DNA of 64,000 nt from Actinoallomurus bryophytorum (lineage in GTDB: Bacteria > Actinomycetota > Actinomycetes > Streptosporangiales > Streptosporangiaceae): assembly GCF_006716425.1 (NCBI RefSeq), contig NZ_VFOZ01000001.1:3410001-3474000 (forward strand). Reading direction: 5' to 3'. The notes below the pieces were generated by a model. It searched no databases, was not told the DNA's origin, and saw nothing but the letters and a program-made list of their open reading frames with translations. Positions 13,935 to 41,886 of the stretch are shown in pieces; the first letter of the stretch is position 1; every line of letters starts with the position of its first letter. The position numbers and the translations under genes are program-made.

Positions 13935-14035
13935 GCCCACGTATTTGCAGGGCGGTACGCGTCGATGAACGCCTCAGCGGCTCTACCAAAGCGCGCGGGG
14001 CGGACGCGCGGACAACAAGTAGTGCGGGGACTCGG

Positions 14036-14395
14036 CCCGCTCAGAACAGACTTGTTCAAGGCAGAGCCGCTTAAGACCGGCCCGCTCAAGATAGGCCTGC
14101 TTGGGACGGGCCTGCTCAATGCAGGCCTGTGCACGGCCGGTCGGCTCAAGGCAAGTTCGCTTAAGTCAGGTCGGCTCAAGGCAAGCCCGCTTAGGTCAGG
14201 TCCGCTCAAGGCCGGCCTGTGCACGGCGGCTCCGTTCAAGGCGGGCCCGTTCAAGGCGGCCCTGCGCGGGCCAGGTCCGTTCAGGGAAGGCTCACTCGAG
14301 ACCGGTCCGTTCGAGGCAGGCCGACCCAAGGCAGGCCCGCCCCAGAAAGGCCCATCCAAGGCAGGCAAACCCCAAGCAGGCAAACCCCAAGCACT
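14036..14395. repeat. About 24 degenerate 15-bp tandem repeats
   Basis: Units such as CCGCTCAAGGCAGGC recur every 15 bp for 360 bp, diverging toward the right end (CAAACCCCAAGCAGG). Every frame stays open, giving 5-residue periodicities (PLKAG on the plus strand, ALSGP on the minus strand). This recalls but does not match the A(D/N)LXX pentapeptide-repeat consensus. It ends about 190 bp before the response regulator start. Confidence 0.85.
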
Positions 14396-21928: not shown

Positions 21929-22273
21929 GTGCGGCTCGTGGAGCTAAAGATCTCGACTGCATCTCAGGGAGGTCACGCCGTCGTCTCTGTATACGGCGAG
22001 GTCGATCTCTATACGGCACCCAGACTGCAAACGGAGCTCGCCGCGCTGGTGCGCGACGGAGTGACCCGGCTTGTAGTGGACCTCAGCGGGGTCGAGTTCT
22101 GTGACTCGACCGGGATGAACGTCCTGCTCTCGGCCATGAAACGGCTGCGGGAGCAAGGCGGCTCGCTGGAGCTCGCGGCGCCCCGTTCGGCGGTACGCCG
22201 GATCCTTCAGGTGACCGGCCTCGACACGGTGTTCTCCGTGCACGATGCCGTACCTGCCGTCGGACGGACGTAG
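21929..22273 (+). CDS. STAS-domain anti-sigma factor antagonist (BldG/SpoIIAA-like)
   Basis: About 114 residues: a complete STAS domain with VSVYGEVDLYTAPRLQTELAAL and the phosphorylation loop VDLSGVEFCDSTGMNVLLSA, whose Ser in DST is the usual kinase target. In partner switching the unphosphorylated form binds an anti-sigma kinase. GTG 21929 follows a G-rich site; GTG 21938 is an alternative. The RsbW-type ATPase at 7241 is the nearest possible partner, but 14 kb away. Confidence 0.9.
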   Translation: MRLVELKISTASQGGHAVVSVYGEVDLYTAPRLQTELAALVRDGVTRLVVDLSGVEFCDSTGMNVLLSAMKRLREQGGSLELAAPRSAVRRILQVTGLDTVFSVHDAVPAVGRT

Positions 22274-22292
22274 TCGCACTACCATCGCCTTC

Positions 22293-23021
22293 ATGCAGGC
22301 GGACACGGCCGTCATTATCGCGGCCAAAGACGAGCAGGACCGGATCGCCGCGACCGTGGAGGCCGCCGCGTCACTACCCGGCGTCGACCTGGTGGTCGTC
22401 GTCGACGACGGATCCACGGACGCGACCGGACGGCTGGCCGCCGGCTGCGGCGCGAGGGTCATCCGGCACTCGCGCAACCGCGGCAAGGGCGCCGCCATGG
22501 AGACCGGCGCGGCAGCCGTGCGTCTTCTCGACGAGGATGTGCCGCATCACCTGCTGTTCCTCGACGCCGACCTTGGTGAGACGGCCAAGCAGGCCGGCCC
22601 GCTCATCGAGCCCGTACGCGACGGCTCGGCCGGCATGACGATCGCTGTCTTCAGTGAGTTGATCAAGCTCGGCGGGCACGGCTTCGTCGTACGCCTGGCG
22701 CGCGACGGCATCAAGCGGCTCACCGGCTGGTCCGCGACTCAGCCGCTCAACGGCCAGCGCTGCCTGACCCGTGCCGCCTTCGACGCCGCCCAGCCACTCG
22801 CGCCGGGCTTCGGCGTCGAGACCGGCCTGACCATCGACCTCCTGCGCAAGGGCTTCAAGATCGCCGAGGTCGAGGTGCCGCTCTCGCACCGCGCCACCGG
22901 CACCGACTGGCGGGCCCAGCTGCACCGCGCCCGCCAGTTCCGCGACGTCGGGCGCGCCCTGGCGGCCCGCGAGCCCGCCGTGACCAGGCAACTGGACCGA
23001 CTGCGCCGTGGCGCCCGCTGA
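22293..23021 (+). CDS. Family 2 glycosyltransferase (GT-A fold)
   Basis: 242 residues: AVIIAAKDEQDRIAATVEAA, VVVVDDGSTDATG (nucleotide-sugar binding), NRGKGAAMETGAA and the LFLDADLGET metal site. No membrane helices. The C-terminal half resembles DPM/GpgS-like synthases, but the protein is shorter than GpgS. The donor and acceptor are unknown; the following two genes for membrane glycosyltransferases suggest a polyprenyl-phosphate or glycan pathway. Confidence 0.9.
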   Translation: MQADTAVIIAAKDEQDRIAATVEAAASLPGVDLVVVVDDGSTDATGRLAAGCGARVIRHSRNRGKGAAMETGAAAVRLLDEDVPHHLLFLDADLGETAKQAGPLIEPVRDGSAGMTIAVFSELIKLGGHGFVVRLARDGIKRLTGWSATQPLNGQRCLTRAAFDAAQPLAPGFGVETGLTIDLLRKGFKIAEVEVPLSHRATGTDWRAQLHRARQFRDVGRALAAREPAVTRQLDRLRRGAR

Positions 23022-23310
23022 ACCGTACGGCTCCCGCCCCCCGGGCGCCCATCCGGGACGCGTCGCCCAGGCGCCCGCCACAGGCGCCGACCCAGAGCCG
23101 GCTGGAGAAGCGTGCTCACCGGCGCCTGCCGTCCCTCACGCCCCGACCTCACGCGGCCCCGAGCGCCCCGGGGGGCCGGTCTCGCGCCGGGAAGGCGAGC
23201 GGCCGGCCGAAAGCACCCGTGGGGACTCCAGGGCGTATGAGCTGCCGGGCGACTCCGACGCGCCCGACCTAGGCCCCACGGCCCGTCCCGAAGTCCTCGG
23301 TCAGGCGCCC

Positions 23311-23640
23311 GCCGTGCTGGGGCCCGCCGTGCTGGGGCCCGCCGGCCTGGGGCCCACCCGCCTGGGGCCCACCCGCCTGGGGCCCACCCGCCTGGGGCCC
23401 ACCCGCCTGGGGCCCACCCGCCTGGGGCCCACCCGCCTGGAGCCCACCCGCCTGGAGCCCACCCGCCTGGGGCCCACCCGCCTGGGGCCCACCCGCCTGG
23501 GGCCCACCCGCCTGGGGCCCACCCGCCTGGGGCCCACCCGCCTGGGGCCCACCCGCCTGGGGCCCACCCGCCTGGGGCCCACCCGCCTGGAGCCCACCCG
23601 CCTGGAGCCCACCCGCCTGGAGCCCACCCGCCCGGGGGTG
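23311..23640. repeat. 22-unit 15-bp minisatellite
   Basis: Twenty-two units of ACCCGCCTGGGGCCC or a close variant (two first units GCCGTGCTGGGGCCC; five AGCCC variants) run for 330 bp. The array has no stops on either strand: LGPTR on plus, GGPQA, GWAPG or GSRRV on minus. It fills most of the gap between the GT2 gene and the next glycosyltransferase. There is no supported gene around it. Confidence 0.97.
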
Positions 23641-23698
23641 CCATCCCACTCTCATTGTCCAACGGGAACAGCGGCGGGCGGAAGTAGAGCGGGGTTCT

Positions 23699-25537
23699 GT
23701 GGATAACGTCGGGCCAGGGCGGACCGCCGGCGGCTCCGCCTCGTCCGGCCCGGGGTCTGGGGGTGTCGGCGGCTCCGCCTCGTCCGGCCCGGGGTCTGGG
23801 GGTGTCGGCGGCTCCGCCTCGTCCGGCCCGGGGTCTGGGGGTGTCGGCGGCTCCGCCTCGTCCGGCCCGGGGTCTGGGGGTGTCGGCGGCTCCGCCTCGT
23901 CCGGCCCGGGGTCTGGGGGTGTCGGCGATTCCGCCTCGTCCGGCCCTGCGCCTGGGACCGTCGGCGACTCCGCCAGGCCGGGCCGGTCCGGCGGACCGGG
24001 GCCGCCTTCCGGCTCCGCGTCCGGGCGTGGAACCTGGGGTGCCCCGGGCCTGTTCCTCGGCGGCGCCGGCCTCGCCTGTCTCCTGCTGACCGCTCTGCTC
24101 GGGCCGTCCGTGATGGAGCCCGCGCTCCCCGGCAGAGCCGGGCAGCCTCCCTACTCCCTCGTCGCCCATCCCTCCCCGTACCTCGTCATCTGCCTCACCG
24201 CCGCCGGCGTCGTACTCAGCGCGGCCGGTCTGGGTCTCTGTCTTTTCGCGGCGCGAAGGGGCTGGTCGTTCCGGCCGCGGGTGCTCCTGCTCGCCGGTGT
24301 GATCGCCACGGCGGCGTTCGCGCTGATGCCGCCGGTCGGATCGGCCGACCACCTCAACTACGCGGCGTACGGCCGCATGGTCGCCACCGGCCACGACCCG
24401 TACGCCACGACCGCGCGGGACCTGCCCGGCGACCCGGTGGCCCGTGCCGTACAGGACTGGGCCGCCACCCCGACCGTCTACGGGCCGATCGCCACCGCGC
24501 AGCAGGCGTTCGCCAGCAAGATCGGGGGCACCTCGGCGCGTCTCACGGTCTTCGTCATGTCGCTCACGAACGCCCTCGCGTTCCTCGCGACCGGGCTGCT
24601 GCTCTACCGGTCCGCACGTGGGGACGCCGGCCGTGAGCTGCGTGCCGTACTCCTGTGGACGGCCAACCCGCTCCTGCTGTTCGAGCTCGTCGGCGGGGCG
24701 CACAACGACGTGCTGGCGATCGTCTTCGCGGTGGCCGGACTGGCGGTGTTCGCGCGCCGGCCGCGGCCTGGCCTCGGCCGCTGTCTGCTGGTGGGCGCGC
24801 TCATCGGCGCGGGCGCCGCGGTCAAGGTCAATGTCGCGATCGCCGGCGGCGGCCCGCTCCTTGTACTCCTGGGTGCGTGGTGGCGGGCGCCCGGCGAGCG
24901 CCGGAGCATCGCGGCACGCGTCGTGGCGCTGTGCGTCCCGGCCGCCGCCGTCGCCGGCCTGGCCTATCTGCTCGCCGGGCCGCACTCCCTCGACCAGCTG
25001 AATCGCGCCTCGAAGTCGGTGTCGCTGGCCACGCCCTGGCACCTGCTGGCGGGGTCGACCGGCGGGCTGCTCGTAACGGTGTCGCGCGGGACCGTGCAGA
25101 CCGGCTCGGTCCTGCTGACCCTCCTGCTGGTCGTACTCCTGCTCCGCGCCCTGCCAAGGCCCTACGCGGACGGGAACGAGACGTTTCGCATCACCGCCGC
25201 GCTCGCGCTCGCCTGGCTGTTCGCCGCGCCATACGCCCTGCCCTGGTACGACGGGCTCGGCTGGGCGATGGTCGCGCTGCTGGCATGGTCGGCGTTCGAC
25301 TGGCTGCTGCTGGCCCGTACGTCGGTGCTCGCCCTCGCCTACCTGCCCGCCAGGGATCCCCGGCTGGCGGGCCTGCCGCACCGGCTGGACTGGCTGATCA
25401 CCGTCGTACGCGCGCAGATCACGCCTTGGGCGCTGACGCTGACTCTGGTCGCTCTGATGGTGATGGCGGCTCGCTGGTCTCCTCGGGCCCAAGCGCCTGG
25501 ATGCTCGCCGCGAGCGCCAGCGGGATCGCCAAGGTGA
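23699..25537 (+). CDS. GT-C membrane mannosyltransferase, MptB-like
   Basis: 612 residues. A disordered Gly/Ser-rich N-terminus (about 1-115) is encoded by 39-bp repeats. It is followed by about a dozen hydrophobic segments. The loop GSADHLNYAAYGRMVATGHDPYA with an early Asp/His and the conserved PTVYGPIAT match polyprenol-phosphate-mannose-dependent alpha-1,6-mannosyltransferases. It likely extends a lipoglycan using a polyprenyl sugar donor. GTG 23699 follows a GGGG site; ATG 24113 would omit the first helix. The 3' end overlaps the convergent gene by 119 bp. Confidence 0.8.
   Translation: MDNVGPGRTAGGSASSGPGSGGVGGSASSGPGSGGVGGSASSGPGSGGVGGSASSGPGSGGVGGSASSGPGSGGVGDSASSGPAPGTVGDSARPGRSGGPGPPSGSASGRGTWGAPGLFLGGAGLACLLLTALLGPSVMEPALPGRAGQPPYSLVAHPSPYLVICLTAAGVVLSAAGLGLCLFAARRGWSFRPRVLLLAGVIATAAFALMPPVGSADHLNYAAYGRMVATGHDPYATTARDLPGDPVARAVQDWAATPTVYGPIATAQQAFASKIGGTSARLTVFVMSLTNALAFLATGLLLYRSARGDAGRELRAVLLWTANPLLLFELVGGAHNDVLAIVFAVAGLAVFARRPRPGLGRCLLVGALIGAGAAVKVNVAIAGGGPLLVLLGAWWRAPGERRSIAARVVALCVPAAAVAGLAYLLAGPHSLDQLNRASKSVSLATPWHLLAGSTGGLLVTVSRGTVQTGSVLLTLLLVVLLLRALPRPYADGNETFRITAALALAWLFAAPYALPWYDGLGWAMVALLAWSAFDWLLLARTSVLALAYLPARDPRLAGLPHRLDWLITVVRAQITPWALTLTLVALMVMAARWSPRAQAPGCSPRAPAGSPR
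23729..23962 (+). repeat. Six 39-bp tandem repeats inside the glycosyltransferase gene
   Basis: Five identical units begin at 23729, 23768, 23807, 23846 and 23885, and a sixth diverged unit at 23924. Each encodes GGSASSGPGSGGV. Identity of the five copies implies recent expansion. The unit is 3n, so length changes keep the frame of the downstream enzyme. Confidence 0.97.
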
Positions 25538-40695: not shown

Positions 40696-41886
40696 GTGAA
40701 ACGGATAAAGACCATCGCGGTGGCAGCAGGTGCGGTCGCCGCCGCGACCTCGCTTTCGGTGGGAGCGTGGGCGGCGACCGGCTACTCACACCCGGCACCG
40801 AAGAAGCAGGCGGCGCCCGCGGCACGGCCGAACGCGAACGCCGCGGCCGAGCCCGCCGGCGCCCCGGCCACCGAGGTCCAGCCCAAGAGCGCAGCGGCCG
40901 CGACCGGCCTGGTCAAGCCGGGCCAGATTCTCCACGTCGGCAAGTGGGTCCGGTCGCCGAACGGAAAGTACGGACTCATCCTGCAGACGGACGGCAACCT
41001 CGTCCTCTACCAGGGCAAGAAGGCCCTGTGGTCCACGGGCACCGGGCGCCAGGCCGGCGCCTCGGCGGTCATGCAGACCGACGGCAACCTGGTCGTCTAC
41101 AGCACCGCCAAGAAGGCGCTGTGGTCGAGCAACACCGGACGTCACGCGGGCGCGACGCTGGCCGTGCAGGACGACGGCAACCTGGTGATCTACAGCAAGG
41201 CCAAGAAGGCCTTGTGGTCGCGGCACGTCACTCTGGGATCTCTCCGGCCCGGCTACGACCTGCCCCAGGGCCAGGCCGTGCGCTCGATGAACGGTGACTA
41301 CACGCTGAGCCAGCAGACCGACGGCAACCTCGTCCTCTACCGGGGCAAGACGGCGCTGTGGAGCTCGGAGACCGGCCGGAACCCGGGCGCGTACGCCGTC
41401 ATGCAGACCGACGGCAACCTGGTCGTCTACAGCAAGGCCAAGAAGGCCCTGTGGTACAGCAACACCTCGGGGCACCCCGGCGCGGCCCTCGAGGTGCAGA
41501 ACGACGGAAACCTGGTCATCTACAGCACCGCGCACAAGGCGCTGTGGTCGCGGCACATGGCCGTCGCCAGCCTGGCCCCGGGCCAGAAGGTGAGCACCGG
41601 CAACGCCGTCCGCTCATCCAACGGGGTGTACACCCTGCAGCAGCAGACCGATGGAAACCTCGTGCTCTACAAGAACGGCAGCACGGCCATCTGGAGTACG
41701 AGCACCCAGGGTTCGGGCGTCTACAGCCTCATGCAGACGGACGGCAACTTCGTGGTCTACCAGGGCACCAAGCCGCTCTGGAGCACCAAGACCACGAGCC
41801 CGGGCGCGACGCTTGCCGTGCAGGACGACGGCAACCTGGTGATCTACAGCAAGGACCATCGGGCCATCTGGGCCAGCAGGAAGTAG
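40696..41886 (+). CDS. Secreted protein with three B-lectin (mannose-binding) domains
   Basis: 396 residues: signal peptide (IAVAAGAVAAATSLSVGAWA), an Ala/Pro linker, then three bulb-type lectin beta-prism domains. Nine copies of the QxDxNxVxY mannose site can be read (QTDGNLVLY, QTDGNLVVY, QDDGNLVIY and variants), three per domain, all with intact Q, D, N and Y. It should bind terminal mannose on the cell surface, on other cells or on mannoprotein glycans. GTG 40696 follows GGGGGAG. A 13-bp terminator hairpin follows. Confidence 0.94.
   Translation: MKRIKTIAVAAGAVAAATSLSVGAWAATGYSHPAPKKQAAPAARPNANAAAEPAGAPATEVQPKSAAAATGLVKPGQILHVGKWVRSPNGKYGLILQTDGNLVLYQGKKALWSTGTGRQAGASAVMQTDGNLVVYSTAKKALWSSNTGRHAGATLAVQDDGNLVIYSKAKKALWSRHVTLGSLRPGYDLPQGQAVRSMNGDYTLSQQTDGNLVLYRGKTALWSSETGRNPGAYAVMQTDGNLVVYSKAKKALWYSNTSGHPGAALEVQNDGNLVIYSTAHKALWSRHMAVASLAPGQKVSTGNAVRSSNGVYTLQQQTDGNLVLYKNGSTAIWSTSTQGSGVYSLMQTDGNFVVYQGTKPLWSTKTTSPGATLAVQDDGNLVIYSKDHRAIWASRK

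What the first reader, a model, noticed from the sequence alone, without database searches (positions are those of the whole stretch)
23311..23962. Minisatellite pair at a mannosyltransferase gene
A 22-unit 15-bp array, stop-free on both strands, precedes a gene that carries five identical 39-bp repeats in its coding N-terminus. Identical copies imply recent expansion and possible length variation of a surface-glycan enzyme.
Basis: partly seen in the sequence, partly recalled or inferred. Interest (0 to 1): 0.62.

Follow-up and report, generated by a model that had tools for sequence, protein, structure and literature searches.

The report
Dispersed minisatellite-bearing element inside mannosyltransferase gene
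The 15-base repeat array is one of about 60 copies of a scattered, mobile-looking DNA element in this bacterium; here it sits inside a sugar-transfer gene and seems to supply that gene's present start codon, and elsewhere an insertion sequence of the RNA-guided IS110 kind uses it as a landing site.

Summary
Both arrays are real (15 bp, 23317-23637; 39 bp, 23728-23974, five exact copies), but the 15-bp array is not specific to this gene. It is the interior of a dispersed element: inverted ends (GGGYCTGTCTCRAAGTC), a locus-specific array (units mostly 15-16 bp), a 69-bp core and a GC-rich arm. The genome (genus Actinoallomurus) has 60 core copies. A. iriomotensis has diverged core-like copies; two of the three seen carry perfect arrays of unrelated 15- or 14-bp units at the same border. 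The core is homologous to a segment inside dnaX of relatives and ends in a DnaA-box-like 9-mer. In five copies an IS110 element sits at the array/core junction, and short stretches of its left end match junction and donor as bridge-RNA guides would. All six informative congeners lack the element at the window site. Here it lies in mptB's N-terminal linker; the only ATG/GTG/TTG start before the first hydrophobic segment in the mptB frame is GTG 23699, inside the core. ATG 24113 is disfavoured by homology. Transposition is inferred: no target duplication was demonstrable. Length variation between strains could not be tested. Closest known kind: MITE with internal minisatellite (BrickBuilt).

The parts
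22245..23021 (+). GT2 glycosyltransferase gene; its 3' end overlaps GTG 23008
   Evidence: Pfam PF00535; followed by mptB in 6 of 6 congeners with sequence on that side
23008..23706 (+). leader ORF (232 aa): probable ancestral mptB start GTG 23008, linker, then the element's array; ends at TAA 23704-23706 inside the core
   Evidence: an in-frame GTG overlapping the GT2 stop is present in 5 of 6 congeners
23277..23316 (+). degenerate left end of the element (CACGGCCCGTCCCGAAGTC at 23277-23295, then CTCGGTC...)
   Evidence: consensus CTAGGGCCTGTCTCGAAGTC
23317..23637 (+). 15-bp tandem array, 21.4 copies
23632..23633 (.). position equivalent to the IS110 insertion point (CCCACCCGCC^CGGGGG) in five other copies; empty here
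23639..23707 (+). 69-bp core: same length in the 54 copies aligned first, two near-invariant blocks in 60
23698..23706 (-). DnaA-box-like 9-mer (TTATCCACA on the - strand), identical in 60 of 60 copies
   Evidence: box sequences from PMC4285127 passages
23699..23701 (+). GTG in the core: only ATG/GTG/TTG in the mptB frame upstream of the first hydrophobic segment
23728..23974 (+). 39-bp array (5 exact copies 23729-23923) in the mptB linker; no right end of the element recognised in this region
23699..25537 (+). mptB-like mannosyltransferase ORF (612 aa)

Best explanation
The 15-bp array is the interior of one copy of a non-autonomous, MITE-like dispersed element. Shown: 60 core copies; in most of them recognisable inverted ends, a short-period array on the left of a 69-bp core and a GC-rich right arm; core blocks nearly invariant; arrays homogeneous inside but different from each other. 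Inferred: the copies spread by transposition, probably at TA of stop codons with help of an IS4/IS5-type transposase; arrays grow locally next to the core; in the window one copy landed in the N-terminal linker of mptB, separated the gene from its probable original start GTG 23008, and now offers GTG 23699, overlapping the leader ORF's stop, as restart codon. In five other copies an IS110 element, a kind guided by a bridge RNA, inserted at the array/core junction.
For: Dispersal: 43 matches of the window stretch; core pattern at 56 places, reversed control 0; 60 places with the core's right half, control 0. Architecture: core 69 bp in 54 of 54; left end recognised in 42, right in 48, both in 33 of 60; end pattern at 101 places, reversed control 2. 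Arrays: identity 0.90 within and 0.62 between, 45 arrays, the two units next to the core left out; TRF periods mainly 15 (40 rows) and 16 (29 rows). Position: 34 of 60 between convergent genes, 21 tandem, 5 divergent, home-made gene caller, no background rate computed; where end and coding frame were clear (score above 15, others dropped), the stop codon lies at one offset in 10 of 16 left and 16 of 20 right cases. Empty site: 6 of 6 informative congeners. Restart: only GTG 23699 in frame. IS110: five copies, 98.1-100% identical, same junction; guide matches sum to 29 nt, 1000 shuffles reach at most 25 (scoring set up after seeing the matches); Pfam and NCBIfam hits above cut-off. IS4/5-type elements with similar ends stand beside two copies.
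Against: No 4-bp target duplication: 1 of 33 pairs identical, shuffled pairs give 1.8. T and A at the flanking positions are each present in 62-69% of ends, so a TA duplication cannot be told from end sequence. No autonomous element with exactly these ends was found among the loci held; the whole genome was not scanned for transposases. The window copy has no recognised right end, so its limits and age are open. Core-like copies of A. iriomotensis show no such ends in the stretches I printed. GTG 23699 is inferred from reading frames; no strong ribosome-binding sequence is seen before it. In one congener (G005) the GTG overlapping the GT2 stop is not in the mptB frame. The IS110 copies were found through the core, so other targets are not excluded.
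Confidence: 0.7

Rival explanations
1. One reading: a gene-specific minisatellite pair that gives length variation of a surface-glycan enzyme.
For: Both arrays abut or lie in mptB and have near-identical units; both periods here are multiples of 3.
Against: The 15-bp array belongs to about 60 dispersed copies; in the family 41 of 85 TRF rows (period up to 25, at least 2.5 copies, rows can overlap) have periods that are not multiples of 3; 3 of 6 congeners lack the linker altogether.
Confidence: 0.12
2. The core is a DNA signal (DnaA or another binding protein) kept by the host; arrays and ends are bystanders and the copies spread by recombination rather than transposition.
For: Near-invariant blocks including third codon positions; same blocks in dnaX of relatives and at intergenic sites of another genus; 9-mer changes concentrate at position 3, where published DnaA boxes also differ; no target duplication.
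Against: 60 copies in this genome against 0-8 in the other 337 searched looks like amplification; boxes listed for Streptomyces and Mycobacterium have G at position 3, seen in 2 of 107 sites.
Confidence: 0.25
3. The elements are protein-tail cassettes: the array frame runs into a core peptide ending in FCG, as does the -1 frame of dnaX.
For: Constant core length in 54 copies; similar -1 frame tail in dnaX; nonsynonymous/synonymous ratio 0.52 in the tail frame.
Against: The ratio is 0.47 in a frame that contains a stop, and third positions inside the blocks are frozen too; periods often not multiples of 3.
Confidence: 0.05

Closest known systems
BrickBuilt MITE of Porphyromonas gingivalis (PMC4596501; abstract and passages seen)
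   Same: Leader, internal minisatellite and tail with small inverted-repeat ends; many copies in one species
   Different: 23-nt unit, 19 copies in ATCC 33277, always intergenic there; here units mostly of 15-16 bp that differ between loci, 60 core copies, a core shared with dnaX, an IS110 landing site and one copy inside a gene
REP elements as targets of insertion sequences, and IS110 bridge RNA (PMC1525189 abstract; PMC11208160 passages)
   Same: A dispersed repeat is the site of an IS110-family element; guide matches to target and donor in the described order
   Different: The target is the array/core junction of a minisatellite-bearing element in an actinomycete
IS4/IS5-family elements and their MITEs (family by Pfam; subgroup recalled)
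   Same: Similar ends (GAGCCTGTCC..., GGGCCTGTTT...) and CTAG at the insertion points of the two IS next to element copies
   Different: No IS with the element's own ends found; no transposition shown

Membership tests
MITE | terminal inverted repeats | tested here: met
   Consensus left CTAGGGCCTGTCTCGAAGTC, right (reverse complement) CTAGGGTCTGTCTCAAAGTC; 42 left and 48 right ends of 60 recognised, both in 33; not recognised on the right of the window copy
MITE | target site duplication | tested here: inconclusive
   4-bp duplication not met (1 of 33); TA not separable from end sequence
MITE | short and many copies, no transposase | tested here: met
   189-718 bp between ends in 33 copies; 60 core copies; five carry a separate IS110
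MITE | related autonomous element | tested here: inconclusive
   IS4/5-type elements with similar but not identical ends
MITE | empty sites in relatives | tested here: met
   One locus tested: 6 of 6 informative congeners empty; in the seventh the contig ended
IS110 (IS110 group) | DEDD and Transposase_20 domains; left non-coding end longer than right | tested here: met
   PF01548 and PF02371; NF033542 189.7 bits, cut-off 140; left end 238 nt, ORF ends 16 nt before the right end
IS110 (IS110 group) | expressed bridge RNA with guides to target and donor | tested here: inconclusive
   Guide-like matches in the described order, 29 nt against shuffle maximum 25 of 1000; expression not testable; core dinucleotide unresolved
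MptB mannosyltransferase | curated family score | tested here: met
   NF038066 49.7 bits, cut-off 40; the related TIGR03459 is far below its cut-off; no Pfam family; activity not testable

The most novel reading that the evidence does not exclude
A short conserved DNA core, shared with a segment of dnaX and ending in a DnaA-box-like sequence, nucleates new minisatellite arrays at its left border whatever the local sequence: unit and period differ between loci and species (15 bp CACAGTCCCCGCCCG and 14 bp CGGGCCGGTCACGG in A. iriomotensis; mostly 15-17 bp units in this genome), while the position relative to the core is the same. A protein bound at the core, or a stalled fork there, would make tandem duplications of about 1.5 helical turns.
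Probability: 0.33. Interest if true: 0.75.

Novelty: new variant of a known kind. Interest (0 to 1): 0.55.

Why it matters
If right, this is a natural system in which the birth of minisatellites can be studied at dozens of sites with one border and many different units, a further dispersed target for an RNA-guided IS110 element, and a case in which an inserted element rebuilt the start of a membrane glycosyltransferase gene. The DnaA-box-like core shared with dnaX makes a link to replication testable.

Tried and rejected
RNA structure of the core: the consensus fold is matched by 18 of 100 (dnaX) and 26 of 100 (element) column shuffles, so a structured RNA is not supported. Protein-tail reading: disfavoured. 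Programmed -1 frameshift in dnaX at G GGG GGC: in phase with a -1 stop 69 nt on in 11 of the 12 dnaX copies compared, but without stem support; kept as a side remark. 4-bp target duplication: not supported. Rfam: no family that bears on the element in five loci at E up to 1. Plasmid records: no match to a 141-bp core stretch; viral contigs: no exact match to an 18-base core pattern. This genome's own dnaX was not obtained, so whether the core came from dnaX or entered dnaX stays open; identity to Actinoallomurus dnaX is 76-84% (4 copies), to the other eight 73-77%. Exact IS110 crossover: CC stands on both sides of the insertion while empty copies have CCC, so the core dinucleotide is unresolved. 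Literature: the searches listed no paper on this element; lists were capped and only open-licence papers are held. Papers seen: PMC11208160, PMC3711429, PMC4285127, PMC10969869 (passages), PMC4596501 (abstract, passages), PMC1525189 (abstract, outline); other listed papers: search listing only.

Full report
OBSERVATION. Both arrays exist where stated. The 15-bp array has 21 full units, 19 of them of two types (G 14, A 5) in runs; the 39-mer is present in five exact copies. The 15-bp unit is free of stops in all frames, which follows from its composition and length.

DISPERSAL. A search of the window's own assembly (9.47 Mb, 3 contigs) with 23250-24300 gave 43 matches, the window included; apart from the window itself none reaches beyond query base 492, that is, they cover array, border and core. 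A border pattern matched 56 places with up to 3 mismatches, none reversed; the right half of the core matched 60 places. I extracted 60 copies. In the 54 aligned first the core is 69 bp in every one. In 60 copies two blocks are nearly invariant, CCATCCCACTnnnATTGTCCA and GGAAGTAGAGCGgggTTCTGTGGATAAC, while the 19 bases between them carry most of the changes; the last 12 bases are identical in 60 of 60. Over the whole core, changes by codon position in the tail frame are 72, 49 and 84 and the nonsynonymous/synonymous ratio is 0.52, which alone would fit weak coding constraint; but inside the blocks third positions are frozen too, and a frame with a stop gives 0.47. I read this as constraint on DNA or RNA.

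ARCHITECTURE. From left to right: an inverted end (consensus CTAGGGCCTGTCTCGAAGTC), a tandem array, the core, a short GC-rich arm and the other end (consensus CTAGGGTCTGTCTCAAAGTC on the opposite strand). Both ends are recognised in 33 of 60 copies, 189-718 bp apart. TRF finds an array reaching within 40 bp of the core in 54 of 60 copies; in the five IS110-occupied copies array units stand on the far side of the insertion. Of 85 TRF rows with period up to 25 and at least 2.5 copies, 40 have period 15, 29 have 16, 4 have 17 and 3 have 14. Units are 90% identical within an array and 62% between arrays. The end pattern occurs at 101 places (reversed control 2); 20 places outside the core family that I fetched include short palindromes of about 40-70 bp and a second, longer type.

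WHERE COPIES SIT. With a home-made codon-usage gene caller, 34 of 60 copies lie between convergent, 21 between tandem and 5 between divergent genes; the genome's own background was not computed, and in the IS110-occupied copies the IS gene can be the neighbour. Where the end was recognised and the flanking frame scored above 15, the stop codon is at one fixed offset from the end in 10 of 16 left and 16 of 20 right cases, mostly TAG; the remaining copies were dropped from that count. Insertion into the TA of a stop codon by an element whose ends begin with G would recreate TAG; this is inference. A 4-bp duplication is not supported (1 of 33).

THE WINDOW COPY. In six congeners (G001, G002, G003, G005, G006, G007) GT2 is followed by mptB and no element is present; for G004 the contig ended. 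In five of the six a GTG overlapping the GT2 stop is in the mptB frame; in G005 it is not, and its first start there is TTG. Here the same GTG is at 23008; its frame runs through about 90 linker codons into the element, the array and the core and ends at TAA 23704-23706. The mptB frame downstream is another one; its only ATG, GTG or TTG before the first hydrophobic segment is GTG 23699, inside the core's GTGGATAAC. ATG 24113 lies within that segment, which is conserved in all six. dN/dS of the body against three congeners is 0.27-0.31, although most of that divergence may predate the insertion. The 39-bp array is in the linker; linkers of congeners differ in length and that of G001 has its own 87-bp repeats. 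The element's right end is not recognised in the window copy.

IS110. Five copies carry a 1337-bp IS110-group element, 98.1-100% identical, at the array/core junction. They were found through the core. The 238-nt left end holds, in the order described for bridge RNA (LTG, RTG, LDG, RDG; PMC11208160 passages), CCCGCCCG, CCCCGG, ATAAGAGC and TCACTGG, together 29 matched bases; 1000 dinucleotide shuffles reach at most 25. The scoring scheme was set up after the matches were seen. Expression of the RNA is not shown.

RELATIVES. Among 8 genomes of the genus only this one has close core copies (25-mer, up to 2 mismatches). A BLAST search found matches in 46 of 341 family genomes and 10 of 68 genera, with only two candidates scored per genome. 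Of 20 regions fetched, 12 lie in one long open frame with the peptide context of dnaX, each with a 77-base segment of the same length; two of the 12 (L129, L134) were scanned and are dnaX, the segment lying after domain III. The right block alone occurs in 45 of 338 genomes and 5 genera, mainly in one genus with 0-8 copies each. In that genus and one congener many of the 25 sites inspected lie upstream of a possible gene start on the opposite strand, UPF0102 (YraN-type) in three (one of the three scanned). Published boxes also differ at position 3.

RECURRENCE OF ARRAYS. A named scan gave contigs of A. iriomotensis; one has the length of G001 contig 20 (128,737), hence the genus name. Besides dnaX this species has three core-like copies among the loci held. 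One is preceded directly by 5.7 perfect copies of a 15-bp unit (L188), one by 4.2 perfect copies of a 14-bp unit within about 15 bp (L139), one by none (L190). In 37.4 kb of that species' loci, part of it held twice, these are the only perfect arrays of at least four copies. The loci were chosen for the core, so the sample is small and selected; still, the position is common to both species while unit and period are not.

COMPARISON. BrickBuilt of P. gingivalis (abstract and passages) has the same plan of leader, minisatellite and tail. Insertion sequences of the IS110 family in dispersed REPs are known. The combination here, with locus-specific units and a core shared with dnaX, I did not find in the searches named in Tried and rejected. 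I rate it a new variant of a known kind.

Noticed in passing
L128, L129, L130, L132, L134-L138, L145-L147: A 77-base segment of constant length in the dnaX linker with a G GGG GGC heptamer in phase and a -1 frame stop (TAA in 10, TGA in 1) 69 nt on in 11 of 12: candidate frameshift site or another nucleic-acid signal.
   Followed up: partly
L131, L133, L142-L144, L194-L213: Motif GTTATCCACAGAAYNNCGTTCYACTTCC, often about 19-20 nt from GACNATGR, upstream of possible gene starts (UPF0102 among them) in other genomes: possible regulon or DnaA-linked site.
   Followed up: partly
L216, L220, L221, L222, L228, L230, L234: Short palindromes of about 40-70 bp made of the element's ends; possible terminators or minimal elements.
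   Followed up: no
L218, L219, L232, L233: Second dispersed type with the same ends and an interior like GACGACAACGCGGCGAGGCGCCGCC.
   Followed up: no
window 14034-14393: Degenerate 15-bp array (unit like GGCCCGCTCAAGACA, 62% match); no core or end match within the thresholds used.
   Followed up: no
window 40982-41852: Tandem repeats of 330 and 93 bp, not examined.
   Followed up: no
L165 from 2573 and L159 from 1456: IS4/5-type elements inserted at the CTAG beside two element copies.
   Followed up: partly
L179 1096-1366: 87-bp tandem repeat in the mptB linker of A. iriomotensis, a different repeat in the same linker.
   Followed up: partly
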